Source of the DNA: Fimbriimonadaceae bacterium | GTDB taxonomy: Bacteria; Armatimonadota; Fimbriimonadia; Fimbriimonadales; Fimbriimonadaceae | Assembly (NCBI GenBank): GCA_019638775.1 | Contig: JAHBTD010000001.1 | Coordinates: 992,001 to 1,056,000, forward strand | Reading direction: 5' to 3' | DNA length: 64,000 nucleotides | Shown here: piece by piece, positions 54,398 to 64,000 of the stretch | Layout of the letters: every line of letters begins with the position of its first letter | Position numbering within the stretch: position 1 is the stretch's first letter | Program-made: the position numbers and the translations under genes | Notes under the pieces: model-generated | Databases searched by the model: none | Told to the model about the DNA's origin: nothing | The model's input: the letters and a program-made list of their open reading frames with translations, nothing else

Positions 54398-55396
54398 CTA
54401 GTCCTTCTTCACGCTTGCGCGCATCGTTTCGACAAGTTCATTGTCCACCGCTTTTTGAGCGAGCAACAGGGCATTCTTTATGGCTTTAGCGCTGCTCCGT
54501 CCGTGGCAGATGATGCAAACGCCGTTCAGACCGAGCAATGGAGAACCGCCTACTTCGGCGTAGTCGGTCTTCGCCCTGAGCTTTTTCACGATACCCTTGA
54601 GGGGCAGATAAGGAAGTCGTCCAAGAGGACTGTTGGGCAAAGCGTCCTTCATCATCGCTTCGATGAGCTCGCCAACACCCTCCGCCGTTTTGAGCACGAT
54701 ATTGCCGACGAAAGCGTCACAAACCACCACATCGCACTCGGACTTGAACATGTCCTTACCCTCGATGTTTCCCGCGAACCACTCGTGCTTTCGCAGCAAA
54801 TTGTAGGCCTGCTTGGCAAAGGCATTCCCTTTGCCCTCCTCTTCGCCGATGTTCAGAAGGTGGACTTTTGGGTCCGGTCGGCCCATGATCGTTTGGGCAT
54901 AGGCTCGGCCCATGAGGGCAAATTCGACGAGGTGCTCAGGATCGACATCTGGGCTTGCCCCAGCATCGAGCAGGAGAAACCCTCCCTTCCGGCAGGGCAT
55001 CGTGCTGGCGATGGCAGGACGGTGAAAGCCATGCATCTGACGCCAAGAGAGCAGACAAGATGCCGTTGCCGCGCCCGTATTTCCCGCAGAAACAAAGGCC
55101 GACGCTTGCCCTTCCTTCACCAAGTTTGCCCCGACCGCCATCGAAGAGTCTTTCTTCTTGCGCAAGGCCTCCGTGGGTTTTTCGTGCATCTCGACGACTT
55201 CCGATGCCGGATGAATCGAGATATTTGGCGGACAGGGGGTTGGGAGAAACTTCTCAATCTGGTCGGGAATCCCAACAAGCAGGATCGGATGCCGCATCAA
55301 GGGAGCGGCTTGGATCGCCCCGAGCACAATCTGCTCTGGGGCATGGTCCCCACCCATCGCATCAAGGGCGATGTATCTCGGACCACTTGCACTCAC
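54398..55396 (-). CDS. plsX: Phosphate acyltransferase PlsX
   Basis: The 332-residue enzyme makes acyl phosphate from acyl-ACP for phospholipid synthesis. It has IALDAMGGDHAPEQIV at the start and the family region VSAGNTGAATAS. The C-terminal part has GLNGVCIICHGRSSAKA. The GTG start overlaps the DUF177 stop by four bases (GTGA), so they are translationally coupled. Confidence 0.97.
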   Translation of the reverse strand: MSASGPRYIALDAMGGDHAPEQIVLGAIQAAPLMRHPILLVGIPDQIEKFLPTPCPPNISIHPASEVVEMHEKPTEALRKKKDSSMAVGANLVKEGQASAFVSAGNTGAATASCLLSWRQMHGFHRPAIASTMPCRKGGFLLLDAGASPDVDPEHLVEFALMGRAYAQTIMGRPDPKVHLLNIGEEEGKGNAFAKQAYNLLRKHEWFAGNIEGKDMFKSECDVVVCDAFVGNIVLKTAEGVGELIEAMMKDALPNSPLGRLPYLPLKGIVKKLRAKTDYAEVGGSPLLGLNGVCIICHGRSSAKAIKNALLLAQKAVDNELVETMRASVKKD

Positions 55397-55941
55397 TTCG
55401 TGCTACCTTCCTCCTCGTCGCCTTTTAGCAGACTTTGCAGTTTGCTAAATTCGGGACGGCCTTCGGCGGCCGAGGGTTTCAGCCCGGAGTTGGCAGCTTG
55501 CGGACAATCACCATCCCAGCCGTACTGGCAAAGCGGCTGCATGGGTGCGGAGACGATCAGGTCTTGTCGGAGGAGAGCTTGCACGTCAAGCGAATTCTCG
55601 ACGAAGAGCTTGTAAGGCTCCTCCTCTTCGTCCACGCGGGCATAGTCGTTCATGCCATAGCTTGCGGGGACGCCAACAACTGGGAACTGCTCATCCACTT
55701 CAAACTCTACGGGGACTTCTATCGGTCCGCTGCAGCGCGCGCAGTCGGCGATGATCTTAGCCGTGAATGTGCCGGTGAGCAACAGGATGTTTCCGGTGCT
55801 CACAGCCTCAAGAAACCCTTGCATGGGTTCCATGAGCTCGATCTCCGGATCGTTTTCTAAATTGGTTGAGATTTCGATCGAGAGTTTCTTGCCAGGATGC
55901 TGGAGAACCTCGTTCAGATCGAGCAGGTGCTCGCGTTTCAT
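55393..55941 (-). CDS. DUF177 (YceD) family protein
   Basis: The 182-residue protein fits the DUF177/YceD family. There is an acidic N-terminal beta-rich part and the zinc-like cysteine pair in CARCSGPIEVPVEFEVDEQF, here written as CARCSGPIEVP and EFEVDEQF. The C-terminal part has DLIVSAPMQPLCQ. In many bacteria it precedes rpmF (ribosomal protein L32), and the family is tied to 23S rRNA processing. Here rpmF is absent and plsX follows directly. The true start is ATG 55941 (MKREHLL). The longer upstream frame overlaps the divergent gene region. Confidence 0.86.
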   Translation of the reverse strand: MKREHLLDLNEVLQHPGKKLSIEISTNLENDPEIELMEPMQGFLEAVSTGNILLLTGTFTAKIIADCARCSGPIEVPVEFEVDEQFPVVGVPASYGMNDYARVDEEEEPYKLFVENSLDVQALLRQDLIVSAPMQPLCQYGWDGDCPQAANSGLKPSAAEGRPEFSKLQSLLKGDEEEGSTK

Positions 55942-56036
55942 TGGCGTGCGGGCGAGTGTACCTGTTGGAATTCTTGCGTAAATGCTGATAGACCCGTAAC
56001 CCAAAGGGCGGAATAACCCGATAGGTAGTGGTGTCC

Positions 56037-56918
56037 ATGAGTGGTTCACGCCTTGATAGCGATCATGAACGCGTTCAAGCCGTCTGGCTGACCGCAAAGA
56101 AGCTGACTCAACACCCGATGATCGAAGGATTAATCGGGCGCACGGTGATGTTTGCTCAAGTTGAGCCCCAACGCGCATCCATCATGGAGCGGCTCATCGC
56201 CCCCGACAATCCCATCCACCCAAGCCTGAAGGCCGCGCTCGACGTTTTCGTGCCCGGTGAAGAATCTATCAACGCAAAGTCAGAACAGCTTGGCGACGTC
56301 AAGGCTACCGCCATCGCACTTGCGGTTTGTTATCACCAAGTCATCCGGGTTCTATCACCGATAGCAGGGCTCGATTCATCTGCCGTCTTCAAGCAAGCTG
56401 TCGCGGTCGCAACTGCTTCCGAGATCTTTGCCGAACGGTCCTGCCGGTTTCCGCCCATCGAAGCTTTTGGCGCGGGTCTGTTTCATCATCTTGGCGTTAT
56501 TCTCATGGGAGTTACCCACAATCAGAGCTATCGAGGATTGCTTTCTGCTGTGAAGGAGTCTCACGGAAATCTGGCCGATGCAGAGAAAAAAGCGTACGGC
56601 TATTCACACGACGAAACAGCAACCGTGATCGGTGAAGCATGTAACTTGCCCGCTCACATTCAGGATGGAATGGTTTGGCACGATGCTGAGCCTTCGGGCC
56701 AGCGGACGGTCGGGCTTTGCGTCAGCCTTGCAGTTCGTCACTGTCATTCCATGGGCTTCGACGCAGGACTGAGCGACACGATACCGGCGCTCGCACCCAC
56801 TGGATTGCGCTGCGTTGGTGTGGGCGAACACAATTCTGACCGAATTGCCGAACTTATTCGCACACAAGTTGAAAGCTTTACACAAGTCTCCTCAGCGATC
56901 TCAAATCAGGCCGCGTAG
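56037..56918 (+). CDS. HDOD-like signalling domain protein
   Basis: A 293-residue protein that resembles HDOD domains. It has an all-helical N-terminal domain (about 10-210) with AFGAGLFHHLGVILMGV and YGYSHDETATVIGEACNLP. The C-terminal part (about 215-293) is of unknown fold. HDOD proteins are linked to signalling and stress regulation in bacteria, often with other output domains, but this one has none that I recognise. The ATG at 56037 is chosen; a GTG at 56028 is also in frame. The DUF177 gene is divergent, 95 bp away. Confidence 0.72.
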   Translation: MSGSRLDSDHERVQAVWLTAKKLTQHPMIEGLIGRTVMFAQVEPQRASIMERLIAPDNPIHPSLKAALDVFVPGEESINAKSEQLGDVKATAIALAVCYHQVIRVLSPIAGLDSSAVFKQAVAVATASEIFAERSCRFPPIEAFGAGLFHHLGVILMGVTHNQSYRGLLSAVKESHGNLADAEKKAYGYSHDETATVIGEACNLPAHIQDGMVWHDAEPSGQRTVGLCVSLAVRHCHSMGFDAGLSDTIPALAPTGLRCVGVGEHNSDRIAELIRTQVESFTQVSSAISNQAA

Positions 56919-57086
56919 GTTCAAATCTGAACAGAATCGTGCTCAGATATAGCATTTTCCACCTCGGATCGTCTAAAGTGCCAACGTTTGCGGTTTTATA
57001 AACCGTCAGAACAATGAACTCAATCTTGCTATACTGTAGCCACGCATCTGACCGGGCTCAGGTATTGCGCTAGAGGTGAATGGAAT

Positions 57087-58397
57087 TTGAGGAAGTTAGC
57101 GTTCCTATGCGTAGTTGCGTCGTTAGCTATCGCCGGTTGCGGCGGTGGAGGCGGCGGTAACGGCGGTGGTGGAGGAGGCGGTGGCCTTCCACCAACAATG
57201 GCGGTTAACACCACGTTGCTGAGTGTGCCAGGCCGTGCCGACGTTACCTATAACACAGGCCAAGGCCGAGCTCCGGGATCAATTACCGGCGTTTTTCGGC
57301 ACTTGTTAGTCTCCGACAATACATACAACGACATCCGAGACATCGTCGAGACACAGTTAAACCCCGCTCTCCAGATTCAGCTAGACGGATATTCGTCTCA
57401 GCAGATCGGGCTTAACGTTCCGATGACAGGCTTTTCGGTCTTGTTGAATGGTCGAAACTTTGAGACGTTCAGTCTTGAGATTGATCGACTCCGAATTGAG
57501 AATCCTAACGGCACCTACCGCGAAAAGACTGGCCCTGCAGGTCAGCCCGTGGTGTTTGAGCAGTATCCGATGTTCCTTCGCGCCTTCCCAGGCCGACGAA
57601 CTGGCATCACGATCCAGCTTGACGACGCGATTCTCAACGTTGATAATTTTGACAACATCGTTTATGACGATCAGTTGTTCCAAGACCTGAACAACGACCT
57701 CAACGAGGGGATTATTCTCGGTTCGTTCAGCGACTATTTTGGGTTTGACATCAGCAATGTCACCAACAAGCCCGAAATGAGCGACACCTCGGCAGCAACA
57801 CGCGTGTACTTCAGCGGTGACTTCATTGCCCTGAGCGGCAACATCGTTGCCGGTACGAACCCATTTGAAGTTCTCGTACCGTTGAATCCTCCGCTTGAGG
57901 GCCTTGTCTCGCCCCCGAACGTTACGCTAAACACAGACGGCACCTACGCTCTCCGCCAGATCGACCCGCGTGATCTGACCAACACTCAGCGCATCGTATC
58001 GAAGCAGGGCACCTGGCGTGAGTGGCACGATCCCAACAACTTGGGCAAGTCGGCTATCTTGAACCCGGCGCCGGTGATCATGCTGATGCTCCCGCAGCAT
58101 CGAGATGGTGATAAGCAAGAGGTCATGTTCTTCGTTCGCAACTTGGCTGGTCAGATCGTTGATTTCTACTTCGGTGAGGTCAACTACGCAACCAACAAGA
58201 TCAACGTATGGCCGATTGAGAACGTTGACGACGGTGCTCCCGACAACGAGGTTGAACTGAACGTTACTTCCAAGAACTTCCGTGCAGGCGGTTCGGGCAG
58301 CAGCTCGGACATCCGAAGCGGATCGTGGGCGCTCAACGCAGGAACGCTGCCCGCGGCCTTTGGTACAAGCGGCACGTTCTTGGTCGTTCGTCCGTAA
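57087..58397 (+). CDS. Lipoprotein with Gly-rich linker, upstream of dop
   Basis: A 436-residue product with a TTG start. The signal peptide ends in LAIAGC, so the mature lipoprotein begins at Cys18. It continues with a run of glycines (GCGGGGGGNGGGGGGGG) and a large beta-rich domain. The domain has repeated Asn/Asp-rich motifs and a C-terminal Gly/Ser stretch (FRAGGSGSSSDIRSGS). Family not recognised. The stop codon overlaps the dop start by one base (TAATG), so the two genes may be co-translated. A TATACT box at 57029-57034 and GAGG before the TTG suggest a leadered transcript. Its role in the UBact region is unknown. Confidence 0.75.
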   Translation: MRKLAFLCVVASLAIAGCGGGGGGNGGGGGGGGLPPTMAVNTTLLSVPGRADVTYNTGQGRAPGSITGVFRHLLVSDNTYNDIRDIVETQLNPALQIQLDGYSSQQIGLNVPMTGFSVLLNGRNFETFSLEIDRLRIENPNGTYREKTGPAGQPVVFEQYPMFLRAFPGRRTGITIQLDDAILNVDNFDNIVYDDQLFQDLNNDLNEGIILGSFSDYFGFDISNVTNKPEMSDTSAATRVYFSGDFIALSGNIVAGTNPFEVLVPLNPPLEGLVSPPNVTLNTDGTYALRQIDPRDLTNTQRIVSKQGTWREWHDPNNLGKSAILNPAPVIMLMLPQHRDGDKQEVMFFVRNLAGQIVDFYFGEVNYATNKINVWPIENVDDGAPDNEVELNVTSKNFRAGGSGSSSDIRSGSWALNAGTLPAAFGTSGTFLVVRP

Positions 58398-59917
58398 TGG
58401 AGCGGATCCTCGCCGGGATCGAGACCGAGTACGGTCTATGGATCAAAGGTAGAGGAGCCGACAGTCAGGTAGACGACGCGATGATGCTCGTCCGGAGTTA
58501 TCCGGGCGAGCATTTTGCTTCGTGGGATTACCGTTTTGAGTCTCCGCGCGCCGACCTTCGAGGGTTTACGGTAGGGCAACTTGCGTATGACCCCGAAGAC
58601 GCCAAGTTCGATACCGGCAAGAGCCGTGGGTCCGATCACGAAGTCCGATCCGACCGGATTCTGCCCAACGGAGCGCGCTTCTATAACGATCACGGGCACC
58701 CCGAATACGCTACTCCCGAGTGCTTTGAATCCTTTGAGACAGCGCTTCACGATTACGCTGGGCAATATACCGTCCTTCGCGCCGCCAAGGTTTTTGAACG
58801 GGAGGTTGGGCGGGAGGTCAAGGTGTATAAGAATAACACCGATTTTCATGGCGCATCGTACGGCACCCATGAAAGCTTCCTCGTGCCGCGGTCTCTTGGC
58901 TTTGAGAAGATTTACCAATCTGTGCTGCCGATGCTTGTGGTGAGGCAGATTCTGACCGGCGCAGGAAAGGTCGGCAGCGAACATGGCGATTGGGTTCCCT
59001 ATCAAATCAGCCAGCGGGCTGACTTCTTCGTGGAGCCTTTTAACACTGAGACGCTCTACCGAAGGCCGATCTTTAACACACGCGACGAACCCCACGCCGA
59101 TCCCGACAAGTGGATACGCCTACATGTGATTAGTGGGGATGCGAACATGTCTCCAGATTGTTCAAGCATGAAGCTTGGGCTGGTGAAACTGGCTTTACAG
59201 CTTGCGATAGTGGGTGAAGCGCCAATATGGAAGTTTAAGAACCCGGTGGATGCGTTCAAAAGGATTAGTCGGGATATGACTTTTGAATTCAAAATTGAGC
59301 TGGATTCAGGGTCATGGACGACGGCTTACGAAGTTTTCGAGTCTTACTTTTCGGCTGCCGAGGCTGTCTTTGACTTGCCTTCTCTCCCTGATCAACGCCA
59401 CCCAAGCTCTATTCCCGAAACGCCAGAGACCGAGATATACCGAGACATCACGATGGCGCGGCAGCAGCTATCCAAACTCAGGAGTGATTTCAGCGCTTTT
59501 GCGAAGGAAGTGGATTGGGCGGCAAAAAAAGTCATGCTTGAGCAGATTGTCGAATCCGAAGGGCTCACTTGGCGGGATCATAGCCTTCAGGCTTACGACC
59601 TTGAGTATCACAACGTCGACCCGGACGAAGGGCTTTACTTTGCGTTGCGTGAGATGGGCCAAGTCGACGATCTTGGAGATGCTGAAGACTGCTTGGAGGA
59701 CTTCTTTGTCGGGCGTCTTGACACTAGCCGAGCGGTTCCACGGGGCATCGCCGTCAAAGAGCACAAAGCTCATCTGAAGACGGCATCGTGGAGGTCGCTT
59801 GTCTTTGAGGTTGATGGCAAGGCTATCGAAATCGAGCTCGACCCAACAAGAACCTACCGCCGGGAACGACTTCAAGGCTTAGACGTAGTAAGCTTTATTC
59901 AAGCTCTGAGAGGATAG
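58397..59917 (+). CDS. dop: Dop homologue (deamidase/deconjugase of the Pup/UBact modifier)
   Basis: This is a 506-residue protein of the Pup ligase/Dop family, a carboxylate-amine ligase fold. The N-terminal IETEYG (Glu9, Glu11) and the DHGHPEYATPE motif (Asp98) hold the catalytic acids. The stretch WDYRFESPRADLRGF (43-57) is the Dop-type loop, lacking in the ligase PafA, so this is the Dop member. KNNTDFHGASYGTHESF and NTRDEPHADPDKW are further conserved blocks. Dop converts the C-terminal Gln of the modifier to Glu and removes the modifier from targets. No ligase gene is in the window. The UBact gene starts five bases after the stop. Confidence 0.92.
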   Translation: MERILAGIETEYGLWIKGRGADSQVDDAMMLVRSYPGEHFASWDYRFESPRADLRGFTVGQLAYDPEDAKFDTGKSRGSDHEVRSDRILPNGARFYNDHGHPEYATPECFESFETALHDYAGQYTVLRAAKVFEREVGREVKVYKNNTDFHGASYGTHESFLVPRSLGFEKIYQSVLPMLVVRQILTGAGKVGSEHGDWVPYQISQRADFFVEPFNTETLYRRPIFNTRDEPHADPDKWIRLHVISGDANMSPDCSSMKLGLVKLALQLAIVGEAPIWKFKNPVDAFKRISRDMTFEFKIELDSGSWTTAYEVFESYFSAAEAVFDLPSLPDQRHPSSIPETPETEIYRDITMARQQLSKLRSDFSAFAKEVDWAAKKVMLEQIVESEGLTWRDHSLQAYDLEYHNVDPDEGLYFALREMGQVDDLGDAEDCLEDFFVGRLDTSRAVPRGIAVKEHKAHLKTASWRSLVFEVDGKAIEIELDPTRTYRRERLQGLDVVSFIQALRG

Positions 59918-59922
59918 AAACG

Positions 59923-60111
59923 ATGTTTACCAAAGCCGACGACCGCCTTAGAAGGCCCGCCACCCCCGAACCCGAGCGCAAGCTTGGCGACGATGGAGGC
60001 CCCGGCAAACCGGACATACGCAAGCCGGGAGGCGACAATGAGCTTCTCAAGCGCCTCCGCAAGGTTGACCCCGATCAGGCCAAAAAATATAGACAGCGGT
60101 CCGGACAATGA
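59923..60111 (+). CDS. ubact: UBact/Pup-like ubiquitin-like modifier
   Basis: A 62-residue, charged and disordered-looking protein with Pro/Gly at the N-terminal half (RPATPEPERKLGDDGGPGKP). A helical stretch (ELLKRLRKVDPDQAKKY) follows. It ends in QRSGQ, matching the UBact signature R-(S/T)-G-(E/Q) instead of the GGQ/GGE of actinobacterial Pup. The final Gln means that Dop must first deamidate it to Glu before a ligase can join it to a lysine of a target. It lies five bases after dop and overlaps prcB by four bases, a gene order typical of the Pup system. Confidence 0.88.
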   Translation: MFTKADDRLRRPATPEPERKLGDDGGPGKPDIRKPGGDNELLKRLRKVDPDQAKKYRQRSGQ

Positions 60112-60854
60112 TTCAAGCCGAACACAAGACTTTCGCCGAACTCGTTGGGTTCAGCACTTCACGAATGCCCGCCAATGCTGGAGAGACGCATGGGACAACG
60201 GTGCTGGCGTTGAGGCACAAAGACGGTGTGCTCATGCTCGCCGACCGTCGCGCCACGGCTGGCAACCTCGTGATGTTCGATCATGCCGAGAAAATCATCG
60301 CTTTAGACGACTCGACGATCCTTGCCATCAGCGGATCGTTTGCGCGGTCAGTTGAAGTAAGCCGGTTCCTCAAACACTCGTTCAAGTATTACCGCCGGAC
60401 AGTCCTAAGCGAGATGTCGCTTGATGGCAAGCTGATGGAGATATCAAGGGCTCTCGCCGGAAACCTGTCCGCAGCGATGGAAGGCGTTGGTGTGTTCTTG
60501 CCGATCGTCGCCGCCTATGACGCAAAAACCGGTGGGTTTAGTATGCATTTCTTCGATGTCGCCGGAGCAAGATTTCAGAACGCTCAATATGCCTGTGCTG
60601 GCTCTGGCTCGGAGAGGATACGCGGTGTATTCGAGTTTCTGGGTCGCACGAAGAAGCCTTGGGAAACCCGTCCGCTCGACGACGTGCTTGCCGACGGTCT
60701 GCTTATGCTCGATATCGCCGCAGACCTGGATTCCGCAACGGGTGGCTTTAGTAAAATCCTGCCGGCCGCTTTTTCTTTGACTGTCGATGGAATTCGTCCG
60801 GTTGATGAAAAACAGCTTCAAAAAGCGTCGGCAACAGTCCTGAATCGGTCCTAG
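60108..60854 (+). CDS. prcB: Proteasome beta subunit
   Basis: A 248-residue beta subunit of the 20S proteasome. It has a 29-residue propeptide ending in THG, and the mature chain starts with Thr30. Relative to that Thr1, Asp17 (Asp46, in LADRR) and Lys33 (Lys62, in AEKII) are in place. Asp/Ser near LDSATGG and the CAGSGSER loop complete the site. Thr1 is the nucleophile that cuts peptides inside the barrel. The ATG overlaps the UBact stop (ATGA). No alpha subunit gene is beside it, unlike in Mycobacterium. The next gene is an efflux channel. Confidence 0.95.
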   Translation: MIQAEHKTFAELVGFSTSRMPANAGETHGTTVLALRHKDGVLMLADRRATAGNLVMFDHAEKIIALDDSTILAISGSFARSVEVSRFLKHSFKYYRRTVLSEMSLDGKLMEISRALAGNLSAAMEGVGVFLPIVAAYDAKTGGFSMHFFDVAGARFQNAQYACAGSGSERIRGVFEFLGRTKKPWETRPLDDVLADGLLMLDIAADLDSATGGFSKILPAAFSLTVDGIRPVDEKQLQKASATVLNRS

Positions 60855-60887
60855 GTTTGGCCCACTTCATCGCCGTTGGTCATAGGT

Positions 60888-60909
60888 CAATACAATTTCA
60901 GGTGTATTG
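60888..60909 (+). promoter_or_regulatory. Inverted repeat overlapping the -10 of the efflux operon (possible operator)
   Basis: CAATACA at 60888-60894 and TGTATTG at 60903-60909 are a perfect seven-bp inverted repeat with eight bases between. The -10 box TACAAT at 60891-60896 lies inside the first arm. A repressor of a TetR- or similar type could bind here and block transcription of the TolC/HlyD genes. No regulator gene is adjacent, so the binder is unknown. Confidence 0.5.
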
Positions 60910-60920
60910 TTGAAAGCACT

Positions 60921-62231
60921 ATGCGCTGTGACAGGACCTTTCGGAGTACGCTCATCTTGGCCTTTCTGGCCCTGGGGACGCTTGGATTCTCTCAAGGGGG
61001 GGATACTCTCACGCTTGAGCAGGTTATCCAACTAGCGAAGAACCGCAACGGCACTATTCAGGCAGCTTATCTGGATGCCGCAGCATCCAAAGAGCGCACT
61101 CGGCAGGCATGGGCCGCATTCTGGCCGACCCTCACCCCAAACTTTCGATACGACTGGTCACGCAATAAGGTGAACACCGGCCCCTTCGATGGTCTATCAA
61201 AAGGTGACGAAAGCACGTCGAGCGTCACCGCAAGATGGCGACTTTGGGATAGCGGATCGCGGGATACGAGCTACCGGTCGAGCCTTAGAAGCCAACGCTC
61301 GCGTGAATACTCAGCGCTCCAAACCCTTCGAGACACGCTGTTTGGTGTACATGCTCAATACTTCGATGCCCTACGGGCGCAAGAGCTATTGCGGGTTGCC
61401 GACTCACAAGTGGTGCGCACCCGCGAGATCCTTGCACAAACTATCGCACTCATTGAGAACGAGCAATTGCCCAAGAAAGATAAGTTCCAGGCAGAGGCCG
61501 ATCTCGCCAACGCCGAGGTAAACCGCCTTTCTGCGCTGAATCGGACAGCGACAAGTCAGTCGGATTTGAAGGCAACAATAGGCTGGACCGATGCAGACGA
61601 GCTCCCTGCTCTTCAAAGCTACGATGAGCCCGCCGAGTTTGATCAGCTACCCCCGCTTTCTGAGGTCATTGCACTAGGGTTGAAGCAGCGGCCTGACCTT
61701 GCAGCACGCAGGGAGAGCATCGAAGCTGCCAAGTACGCCCTTGCCCAAACACGGCGCGACGGTTTGGCGATCTGGAGTGTTGATGCCACTTACACCAAGC
61801 AGTTCTCACGTGAGAACTTAGACAATCAAGCTTTGGTATTTCAGGTTTCAATTCCTCTATTTGATGCAGGAAGTTCAAAATCTGCGGTTAACGAAGCGAG
61901 TTATAACCTACAATCGCAGCAGAGTTCGCTCGTCCAATCCGAAAGATTGACGCGCAGTGAGATCGAATCAGCGTATAAAGTACTGCAGCAAGATACACTG
62001 AGGGTTCAAGCAGCCAAGAAAGCTCTCGAAGCCTCAAAGGTGAACTTTGATGCTGCGAGTAAAGCTCAGGCGCTTGGTGCGGAAGGAACGACTTTGATCA
62101 CAGTTCTGACCGCGCAAACAAGCTTAGTGACAGCTGAGTCAAATTACGTCGAAGCGATTTACGACTACTATATTTCGGAGATTCGCCTCAAACTTGCGAT
62201 AGGGGAAGTTTTGCCAGGTGAATTGCCATAG
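60921..62231 (+). CDS. TolC-like outer-membrane efflux protein
   Basis: A 436-residue outer-membrane factor with a signal peptide (STLILAFLALGTLGFSQG). Two long helical repeats of the TolC/OEP family span about 40-230 and 240-430. They hold LEQVIQLAKNRNGTIQAAY at the start and a matching SEVIALGLKQRPDLAARR in the second. It would form the outer-membrane exit duct of a tripartite pump. The adaptor gene follows after three bases. An in-frame codon 45 bases upstream is less likely to be the start. Confidence 0.92.
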   Translation: MRCDRTFRSTLILAFLALGTLGFSQGGDTLTLEQVIQLAKNRNGTIQAAYLDAAASKERTRQAWAAFWPTLTPNFRYDWSRNKVNTGPFDGLSKGDESTSSVTARWRLWDSGSRDTSYRSSLRSQRSREYSALQTLRDTLFGVHAQYFDALRAQELLRVADSQVVRTREILAQTIALIENEQLPKKDKFQAEADLANAEVNRLSALNRTATSQSDLKATIGWTDADELPALQSYDEPAEFDQLPPLSEVIALGLKQRPDLAARRESIEAAKYALAQTRRDGLAIWSVDATYTKQFSRENLDNQALVFQVSIPLFDAGSSKSAVNEASYNLQSQQSSLVQSERLTRSEIESAYKVLQQDTLRVQAAKKALEASKVNFDAASKAQALGAEGTTLITVLTAQTSLVTAESNYVEAIYDYYISEIRLKLAIGEVLPGELP

Positions 62232-62234
62232 CGG

Positions 62235-63986
62235 ATGAAAAAAGGCATTTATTGGATCGGTGGAGTTGCAGCCCTGGGTTTCCTGGGCTGGTTTTTCTTA
62301 TTAAGGGGCGGCTCCGGCAACGACGAAATCGAATATCGATACGAGAAGGTTCAGCGAACCGAGCTTGTCCGTTCAATTAGCTCGACCGGGCAGCTCGTTG
62401 CTCTCACGACGGTCGACGTCAAATCCAAAGCCGGCGGCACGATTGTACGGCTTGCCGTTGATGAAGGCTCGAAGGTGAAGATGGGGGATCTCATCGCCGA
62501 GATCGACCCGCGCGACACCAAAGCCACCTACGATCAAGCCACAGCAGACGTGGAAACGGCTCAGGCACGCGCCGACCAAGCGGCTATCAGCTACGACCTT
62601 CAGATTGCGAACAGCCAGACTGCCGTCAAAGATGCTGAGAACGCATTGGTTGCCGCCAAGATTCGCTACGACCGGGCCAAGCTTGAGGCAGACCGTCAAC
62701 CCACGCTGACCAAAGCAAATATCACTTCTGCGCAAGCTGCTTTCGATTCAGCCAAGTCGGATTACGACAAGTACATCAACATCACAGCCCCCCAAGTCCG
62801 ACGAGACGTGCGGGGAACTCATGATCGAGCGAAGGCCGACTTGGCTGCAGCAACTGCCGACCTCGAACGACAGAAGGAACTTTATAGCTTGGGCTATGTG
62901 GCAAAGGCCGTCGTAGAGCGCTCGCAGTCCACGTATGAAGGGGCAAAATCTACCTTCAGCGTCGCCGAACAGAGGCTTCTTACTCTCGACAAAGAGATCG
63001 AAGCTGAAACTACCCGGCTCAAGTTGGCGAGGGATCGCGCTGGAGCCTCGCTTGATGAGGCAAAGGCGAACGGAAGCCAAACCGCAATCGCCTTAAAAAG
63101 CCTACAAGATGCCCAAACAGCAGTCAGAACGGCTGAAATTAATATTCAGAAGGCCAAGGACGCGCTCGCAAACAATAAACTCCGTGCGAGCGAACTCAGC
63201 GCTGCCAAAGCTGGCACTGTTCGAAGCCGAGTTCAACTGGAGAACACCAAAGTCCAGCTCGACAGTACAACGGTCTTGGCGCCTCGCGATGGCGTTGTCA
63301 CGCTCAAGTACTTGGAAGAGGGGACGATCATCCCTCCGGGCACCAGCACGTTCGCCCAGGGCACGAGCATCGTGCAGATCAGCGACGTAACTCGGCTCTT
63401 TGTCGAGTGCGCTGTTGATGAAGCTGACATCTCCGCCGTAAAGGTCGGGCAGCGCGTACGCATCCTCACGGAAGCTTTCCCGGGTGTCGCGCTTGACGGT
63501 GAAGTCGTCCGCGTGAACCCTGCGGCATTGACCGCTCAGAACATCACCGCCATCAAGGTCCGCGTTGAGATCAAGCCCGGCTACAAGATTGAGATCATGC
63601 CTGGCATGAACGCGACCTGCGAATTCATCACGCTCAGCAAGCCGGACATTTTGAGAATCCCTGGACAGGCGCTTATCCGTGAAGACGGAAAGACTTTTGT
63701 GCGCGTCAAGGGCACAGACCCGCTCAAGCCGGAAAGACGGGAAGTCAAGGTTGGGGATACCGGCAACGACGGTGTAGAGATTCTTGAAGGCCTGAAAGAG
63801 GGTGAAGAGGTCGTTGTCGCTGAGATCAACCTGCGAGAGCTGCGTGAGATTCAGGAACGCATGGTCGAGGCCCAGCAGGGCGGAGGCTTGGCCGGTGGAG
63901 GCAGTAGGCCCGGAGGCAATCGAACACGCACCAGCGCGGCAACCGCCGGAGGCACGGGCGGCAGTGGAGGCGGAGGAAACCGATGA
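62235..63986 (+). CDS. Membrane-fusion adaptor of an efflux pump (HlyD/MacA-like)
   Basis: The 583-residue adaptor has one N-terminal membrane helix (about 6-24). The lipoyl-like half near GTIVRLAVDEGSKVKMGDLI follows, then a very long coiled coil (about 95-335, Ala/Lys/Asp-rich). The second lipoyl half has VLAPRDGVVTLKYLEEGTII. The beta-barrel and membrane-proximal domains come next, and the protein ends in a Gly/Arg/Ser-rich tail. It joins an inner-membrane pump to the TolC-type channel. The MacA-like layout fits an ABC partner. The stop overlaps the next ATG. Confidence 0.92.
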   Translation: MKKGIYWIGGVAALGFLGWFFLLRGGSGNDEIEYRYEKVQRTELVRSISSTGQLVALTTVDVKSKAGGTIVRLAVDEGSKVKMGDLIAEIDPRDTKATYDQATADVETAQARADQAAISYDLQIANSQTAVKDAENALVAAKIRYDRAKLEADRQPTLTKANITSAQAAFDSAKSDYDKYINITAPQVRRDVRGTHDRAKADLAAATADLERQKELYSLGYVAKAVVERSQSTYEGAKSTFSVAEQRLLTLDKEIEAETTRLKLARDRAGASLDEAKANGSQTAIALKSLQDAQTAVRTAEINIQKAKDALANNKLRASELSAAKAGTVRSRVQLENTKVQLDSTTVLAPRDGVVTLKYLEEGTIIPPGTSTFAQGTSIVQISDVTRLFVECAVDEADISAVKVGQRVRILTEAFPGVALDGEVVRVNPAALTAQNITAIKVRVEIKPGYKIEIMPGMNATCEFITLSKPDILRIPGQALIREDGKTFVRVKGTDPLKPERREVKVGDTGNDGVEILEGLKEGEEVVVAEINLRELREIQERMVEAQQGGGLAGGGSRPGGNRTRTSAATAGGTGGSGGGGNR

Positions 63987-64000
63987 CCGTTGGCGACAGC
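63983..64000 (+). CDS. Start of the next gene, cut by the window edge
   Basis: ATG at 63983 overlaps the adaptor stop (ATGA) and continues for six codons (MTVGDS) to the window end. By operon context it is probably the ABC transporter ATPase or permease (MacB-like) of the same pump, but the sequence is too short to show it. Confidence 0.4.

What the first reader, a model, noticed from the sequence alone, without database searches (positions are those of the whole stretch)
58397..60854. Dop-UBact-proteasome beta operon without an adjacent alpha subunit or ligase
Three genes are packed with spacings of five bases and a four-base overlap. They encode a Dop-type deamidase, a 62-residue modifier ending RSGQ and a proteasome beta subunit with Thr1/Asp17/Lys33 in place. 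This is a Pup-like protein-tagging system in a likely non-actinobacterial genome. The absence of prcA, pafA and a Mpa-type ATPase in the next genes is unusual, because actinobacterial clusters keep prcB next to prcA. Either the other parts lie elsewhere, or the system works in an unusual form. The link between UBact and the proteasome is known in other phyla from family studies. The loss of adjacency is what I see here.
Basis: partly seen in the sequence, partly recalled or inferred. Interest (0 to 1): 0.88.

Follow-up and report, generated by a model that had tools for sequence, protein, structure and literature searches.

The report
Scattered bacterial ubiquitin-like proteasome system
The window holds half of a complete bacterial protein-tagging and shredding machine (UBact plus proteasome); the "missing" parts sit elsewhere in the same Armatimonadota genome, because this bacterial family has broken up an operon that its relatives keep whole and has put an unknown lipoprotein gene in front of what remains.

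Summary
In detail: Dop (58397-59917), UBact (59923-60111...RQRSGQ) and PrcB (60108-60854) are tightly packed, with no alpha subunit, ligase or ATPase beside them. It is not a stripped-down system. The same 99.9%-complete genome encodes one PafA, one PrcA, one Mpa-type ATPase and one UBact, at four separate loci. Across 113 genomes of the order nearly all parts co-occur, and one reduced genus has lost them together. Other Armatimonadota families and Ca. Fraserbacteria keep one block, Mpa-Dop-UBact-PrcB-PrcA-PafA, so the scattering is derived. In this family PrcA is unlinked from UBact/PrcB in 75 of 75 species, including closed genomes and, very probably, the cultured Fimbriimonas ginsengisoli. 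PrcB stays beside PrcA in the three sister families that have the system. It is found in 77 of 85 genomes of this family and in none of 28 outside it, and lies just upstream of Dop-UBact in 73 of 75. Mpa tails lack the actinobacterial GQYL motif and end in [VI][VIL], but MN here. Verdict: a genuine known system with a new gene layout and an unexplained lipoprotein partner.

The parts
57087..58397 (+). 'UpSec': conserved lipoprotein of unknown family (436 aa, lipobox LAIAGC, Gly-rich linker, beta-rich body), first gene of the unit; stop overlaps the Dop start by 1 base
   Evidence: no Pfam/NCBIfam hit; 30-member alignment with invariant Gly-Cys lipobox; 73 of 75 genomes have it just upstream of Dop-UBact; AF2 pLDDT 86.7
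58397..59917 (+). Dop (deamidase/depupylase-type UBact-processing enzyme, 506 aa)
   Evidence: PF03136 5.6e-126; best PDB match Dop 4b0r 3.3e-82 with catalytic Asp aligned; Dop loop WDYRFESPRADLRGF; tree
59923..60111 (+). UBact modifier, 62 aa, C-terminal RSGQ
   Evidence: PF20513 1.7e-20, NF033388 2e-21; only copy in the genome
60108..60854 (+). PrcB, 20S proteasome beta subunit with propeptide; Thr1 = residue 30
   Evidence: PF00227 4.8e-24; TIGR03690 116.9 bits; actinobacterial PrcB structures; invariant catalytic residues

Best explanation
This is the Dop-UBact-PrcB remnant, preceded by a lineage-specific lipoprotein gene, of a complete UBact conjugation and 20S proteasome system whose other genes lie elsewhere in the genome: PafA on C2 at about 445.2-446.7 kb, PrcA on C3 at about 313.3-314.0 kb, Mpa on C1 at about 1318.0-1319.7 kb. 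Inferred mechanism: Dop deamidates the C-terminal Gln of UBact to Glu and later removes the tag; PafA ligates UBact through that Glu to substrate lysines; the Mpa ring recognises UBact and threads the substrate into an alpha7-beta7-beta7-alpha7 core built from trans-encoded PrcA and operon-encoded PrcB. Ancestrally the six genes were one block. In Fimbriimonadales Mpa left, and in this family PafA and PrcA are away too, so alpha/beta stoichiometry must be matched in trans. Shown here: gene content, layout, conservation and active-site residues. Inferred: the chemistry, the conjugation and the proteolysis.
For: Two PF03136 genes, three PF00227-type genes (PrcB, PrcA, and one small third gene read as HslV), one UBact and one pup_AAA-type Mpa in the genome. 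Across 113 genomes of the order: UBact 100, Dop/PafA 109, PrcA 97, Mpa 104; in genomes of good quality 83 to 85 of 88. Genus g24 (G067, G068; 1.5 Mb, 97% complete) lacks every part, so the parts are lost as a unit. PrcA within 5 kb of UBact: 0 of 75 in the window's family, 12 of 12 in f3/f4; in f2, PrcB and PrcA stay adjacent in 6 of 6. Full block in 11 of 17 loci from other Armatimonadota families and in Ca. Fraserbacteria. Dop and PafA form two clades at 100/100 support. Active-site residues intact.
Against: No experiment shows conjugation here. Dop, PafA, PrcA, PrcB and Mpa all score below NCBI's equivalog cut-offs, which seem fitted to actinobacterial proteins. Mpa lacks the GQYL docking tail, and in this genome even the clade's [VI][VIL] tail reads MN, so docking to PrcA might be weakened. 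The own genome is a 126-contig assembly with 4% estimated contamination.
Confidence: 0.88

Rival explanations
1. Dop-UBact-PrcB is a self-sufficient, unusual system: PrcB works without alpha subunits (HslV-like), or UBact is a regulatory tag without proteolysis.
For: The alpha subunit is unlinked in the whole family and divergent: own PrcA is about 41% identical to those of sister families and scores 61 bits against a 139-bit cut-off. The Mpa tail is atypical.
Against: PrcA is kept in 83 of 88 good genomes of the order, with the pocket lysine (Mtb Lys52) invariant in the aligned set. Mpa and PafA are kept too, and all parts are lost together in genus g24. A separate small PF00227 gene read as HslV exists.
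Confidence: 0.06
2. The apparent separation is an assembly or binning artefact of fragmented metagenome bins.
For: The own genome is in 126 contigs; 59 of 75 family genomes have PrcA on a different contig from UBact.
Against: Sixteen family genomes carry both on one contig, 20 kb to 1.9 Mb apart, several of them single-contig genomes, including one of 5,231,762 bp, the published length of the F. ginsengisoli Gsoil 348 chromosome. The flanks downstream of PrcB are read through in most loci.
Confidence: 0.02
3. The upstream lipoprotein is a passenger with no role in UBact biology, held in place by operon structure alone. (This concerns one part only and is compatible with the best explanation.)
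For: It has a lipobox in 30 of 30 members and should sit outside the cytosol, away from the proteasome. In G044 it stayed at the plsX locus when Dop-UBact-PrcB moved.
Against: It lies just upstream of Dop-UBact in 73 of 75 genomes despite 23-47% identity and shuffled flanks, is confined to the one family where prcA left, and is absent from the genus that lost the system. In G044 the next gene on its strand is Mpa.
Confidence: 0.55

Closest known systems
UBact conjugation/proteasome system (Lehmann, Udasin, Livneh, Ciechanover 2017, BBRC 483:946; paper not held, citation seen in PMC5751360)
   Same: UBact over both curated cut-offs; Dop, PafA, PrcA, PrcB and Mpa homologues all present; Gln/Glu C-terminus
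   Different: Genes at four loci; PrcA unlinked from PrcB; a lipoprotein gene joined to the front of the operon. Whether the 2017 paper noted any of this could not be read.
Actinobacterial Pup-proteasome system (Mycobacterium tuberculosis)
   Same: Same enzymes and expected chemistry; dop-pup-prcB order as in mycobacteria (PMC3511204)
   Different: Gene order is called rigidly conserved there (PMC3511204), and PafA homologues and Pup were called neighbours in all lineages (PMC2588565); here the block is split. Modifier is UBact, not Pup (PF05639 finds nothing). Mpa lacks GQYL and PrcA lacks the Arg26 equivalent.
Membrane-linked Pup systems of Plesiocystis and Rhodopirellula (PMC2588565)
   Same: A Pup-type ligase unit linked to a gene for a membrane/envelope protein
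   Different: Those lack linked proteasome genes and have a ligase with transmembrane segments; here the proteasome is present and the partner is a lipoprotein; the two partner proteins were not compared.

Membership tests
UBact system | UBact modifier over curated cut-offs (PF20513, NF033388) | tested here: met
   73 bits vs 27.8; 76 bits vs 35; single copy
UBact system | C-terminal Gly-Gln or Gly-Glu | tested here: met
   RSGQ here; Q or E in all 59 sequences read: 41, 18
UBact system | Dop and PafA paralogues in one genome | tested here: met
   Two PF03136 genes; Dop loop only in Dop; two clades at 100/100
UBact system | 20S alpha and beta subunits plus Mpa-type ATPase | tested here: met
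   PrcB in window; PrcA L008:8278-8979, Mpa L009:1354-3024
UBact system | Contiguous Mpa-Dop-UBact-PrcB-PrcA-PafA block (typical layout in relatives, not a requirement for membership) | tested here: not met
   Only Dop-UBact-PrcB contiguous; others at three further loci; block intact in outgroups
UBact system | Covalent conjugation to lysine and proteasomal degradation | not testable with these tools
   Needs biochemistry or mass spectrometry
Actinobacterial Pup-proteasome system | Pup modifier (PF05639) | tested here: not met
   No match in the genome
Actinobacterial Pup-proteasome system | Scores over NCBIfam equivalog cut-offs TIGR03686/03688/03689/03690/03691 | tested here: not met
   Each is the best match of its protein but below cut-off: 293.7/551.3, 347.6/492.3, 448.3/504.75, 116.9/191.9, 61.4/139.05
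Actinobacterial Pup-proteasome system | Mpa C-terminal GQYL docking motif | tested here: not met
   Own Mpa ends RKSMN; 35 of 35 relatives end [VI][VIL]
Known lipoprotein or adhesin families (for UpSec) | Profile match or convincing fold match | tested here: inconclusive
   No Pfam match across 30 members; best Z 6.3, rmsd 3.2 over 98 residues; best Z 5.0, rmsd 3.2 over 63 residues for the C-terminal half alone

The most novel reading that the evidence does not exclude
UpSec is a working part of the system in this family: a surface or periplasmic lipoprotein that couples UBact tagging to the state of the envelope, for example as a sensor output, or as an envelope protein whose unexported precursor is UBact-tagged. 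It is found only in the family where PrcA left the operon. In addition, UBact-type proteasomes use a different activator-docking code: a hydrophobic [VI][VIL] Mpa tail paired with an alpha pocket that keeps Lys52 but lacks Arg26.
Probability: 0.2. Interest if true: 0.75.

Novelty: new variant of a known kind. Interest (0 to 1): 0.5.

Why it matters
Papers describe the Pup-proteasome gene order as rigidly conserved (PMC3511204) and Dop/PafA homologues in Armatimonadetes as very sporadic (PMC7947786). Here the system is nearly universal in an order of Armatimonadota (100 of 113 genomes) and present in 167 of 291 genomes of the phylum, while its operon falls apart stepwise. That gives a natural series for asking how 20S alpha/beta balance is kept without co-transcription. 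The lipoprotein partner and the atypical Mpa tail are concrete, testable leads in a cultured species, F. ginsengisoli.

Tried and rejected
1) Second Pup or UBact gene: none. 2) A GTG start at 58325 for Dop, given by the mechanical ORF list: rejected, because ATG 58397 matches the Dop N-terminus (RILAGIETEYG) and gives the TAATG junction. 3) Fold of UpSec: full model and C-terminal half searched against PDB with Foldseek and VIA-align; nothing above Z 6.3 (an adhesin-like beta-sandwich over residues 48-181) or below E 0.005, so no family is assigned. A missing match does not show a new fold. 4) Promoter scan around the operon gave 3 sites against 2.8 expected by chance; no Rfam match in 55000-64000. 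5) New home of PrcA: a secreted M28 peptidase lies just upstream in 6 of 20 relatives, but this is not general. 6) The 2017 UBact paper is not in the library, so prior notice of the Fimbriimonadales layout could not be excluded.
Full report
WHAT IS IN THE WINDOW. The three genes are as described: Dop 58397-59917, UBact 59923-60111 and PrcB 60108-60854, with a 5-base gap and a 4-base ATGA overlap. Profiles identify them without doubt. Dop aligns to the solved Dop of entry 4b0r at 3.3e-82 with the catalytic aspartate region (own FYNDHGHPEYATPE, 4b0r LYVDHAHPEYSTPE) in register. PrcB keeps Thr1, Asp17 and Lys33, and the Ser129 and Asp166 positions, invariant over a 19-member alignment. One gene was missed: 57087-58397, a 436-residue lipoprotein ("UpSec") whose TAA stop overlaps the Dop ATG (TAATG).

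THE MISSING PARTS ARE IN THE GENOME. The assembly (4.3 Mb, 126 contigs, 99.9% complete, 4.0% contamination) holds a second PF03136 gene at C2:445223-446599. It is a PafA: it lacks the Dop loop, has the PafA motif NGARLYIDAVGSHLEYATAE and falls in a PafA clade at 100/100 support. PrcA is on C3 (L008:8278-8979, minus strand), TIGR03691 8e-17; the profile of its family matches solved PrcA chains at about 1e-17. Mpa is on C1, 266 kb downstream of the window operon (L009:1354-3024), TIGR03689 448 bits, with solved actinobacterial Mpa as its best match. A third small PF00227 gene (C2:987028) is read as HslV from its size; this label is an inference. UBact is single-copy, and Pup (PF05639) is absent.

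THE SYSTEM IS ONE UNIT IN EVOLUTION. Over 113 genomes of the order: UBact in 100, Dop/PafA in 109, PrcA in 97, Mpa in 104; in high-quality genomes 83 to 85 of 88. Two genomes of one reduced genus (G067, G068; 1.5 Mb) lack every part. Phylum-wide, UBact is in 167 of 291 genomes. Named relatives are Armatimonadota, including Fimbriimonas. The contig of G015 is 5,231,762 bp, exactly the published length of the F. ginsengisoli Gsoil 348 chromosome (PMC4072686), so a cultured type strain very probably shares this layout.

THE SPLIT IS DERIVED AND STEPWISE. Candidatus Fraserbacteria (L188) carries Mpa-Dop-UBact-PrcB-PrcA-PafA in one run. Of 17 loci from other Armatimonadota families, 11 carry all six genes and 16 keep PrcB next to PrcA; the remaining one is cut off at the end of the stretch. 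In Fimbriimonadales Mpa is elsewhere in the loci examined. Family f4 and part of f3 keep Dop-UBact-PrcB-PrcA-PafA; f2 and most of f3 have PafA apart. In f2, PrcB and PrcA remain adjacent in 6 of 6 even when the pair has left Dop-UBact. Only in the window's family f1 is PrcA away from PrcB and UBact: 0 of 75 within 5 kb, with 16 measured on a single contig at 20 kb to 1.9 Mb. The published statements that the order is "rigidly conserved" (PMC3511204) and that PafA homologues and Pup are neighbours in all lineages (PMC2588565) do not hold here; nor does the view that Armatimonadetes carry these genes very sporadically (PMC7947786).

THE LIPOPROTEIN PARTNER. UpSec has an invariant Gly-Cys lipobox after a hydrophobic stretch, a Gly/Ser/Thr-rich linker and a beta-rich body. 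A profile from 30 members finds it in 77 of 85 f1 genomes and, at comparable strength, in none of the 28 other genomes of the order. In 73 of 75 genomes that have both, it lies within 4 kb upstream of UBact on the same strand, usually a few bases from Dop. The exceptions are G066, where the contig ends in Dop just after UpSec, and G044, where Dop-UBact-PrcB moved away and Mpa now lies downstream of UpSec. No Pfam family matches; fold searches with the whole protein and with the C-terminal half gave nothing decisive. An exported protein locked to a cytosolic degradation system is unexplained; a passenger role is at least as likely as a functional one. A loose precedent is the linkage of Pup ligases to membrane proteins in Plesiocystis and Rhodopirellula (PMC2588565).

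AN ALTERED DOCKING TAIL. M. tuberculosis Mpa opens the 20S gate with a C-terminal GQYL; its Tyr contacts alpha Arg26 or Glu119, and the terminal carboxylate can pair with Lys52 (PMC9599533). In 35 of 35 relatives examined, including Fraserbacteria, Mpa ends [VI][VIL] with no Tyr. In the matching PrcA proteins the Lys52 position is invariant in the aligned set, but the Arg26 position varies. The two changes fit each other, though this rests on sequence alignment alone. The window's own species is odd even here: its Mpa ends SMN (AGC ATG AAC TAG) where its near relatives have SVI.

MECHANISM. By homology to Pup: Dop converts the terminal Gln of UBact to Glu, PafA ligates it to lysines, Dop reverses this, and Mpa feeds tagged proteins to the 20S core. 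In species whose UBact already ends in Glu (several here), Dop would be needed only for removal. Content, layout and conserved residues are shown; the reactions are inferred.

LIMITS. No expression or biochemical data; the 2017 UBact paper could not be read; family labels f1-f5 are the tool's own; gene counts in fragmented genomes are lower bounds.

Noticed in passing
L009:3013-3024 (own genome, C1 about 1,319.7 kb): Mpa C-terminus reads ...RKSMN in this species, while all 35 relatives examined end [VI][VIL]; this may affect docking to the proteasome alpha ring.
   Followed up: partly
L119, L121, L126, L128, L131, L132 (PrcA loci); own L009:29-1099: A secreted M28-family peptidase lies 26-117 bp upstream of prcA in 6 of 20 sampled relatives, while in the own genome its homologue (48-63% identical) sits just upstream of mpa instead.
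   Followed up: partly
G067 and G068 (genus g24): Two 1.5-Mb, 97%-complete genomes of the same family lack UBact, Dop, PafA, PrcA, PrcB, Mpa and UpSec altogether, a natural loss of the whole system.
   Followed up: no
L169 (G007:C6:60500-70500): In one f2 genome PafA and Dop are near neighbours on one contig, while UBact, PrcB-PrcA and Mpa lie on three other contigs: a different way of breaking the operon.
   Followed up: no
L191:4156-5406 (G069): A second, diverged UpSec-like lipoprotein gene away from the UBact operon in G069, and also in G070.
   Followed up: no
tree: Dop has a long branch leading to family f1 (0.53 changes per column, against 0.22 for PafA), so Dop seems to have evolved faster where the operon broke up.
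   Followed up: no
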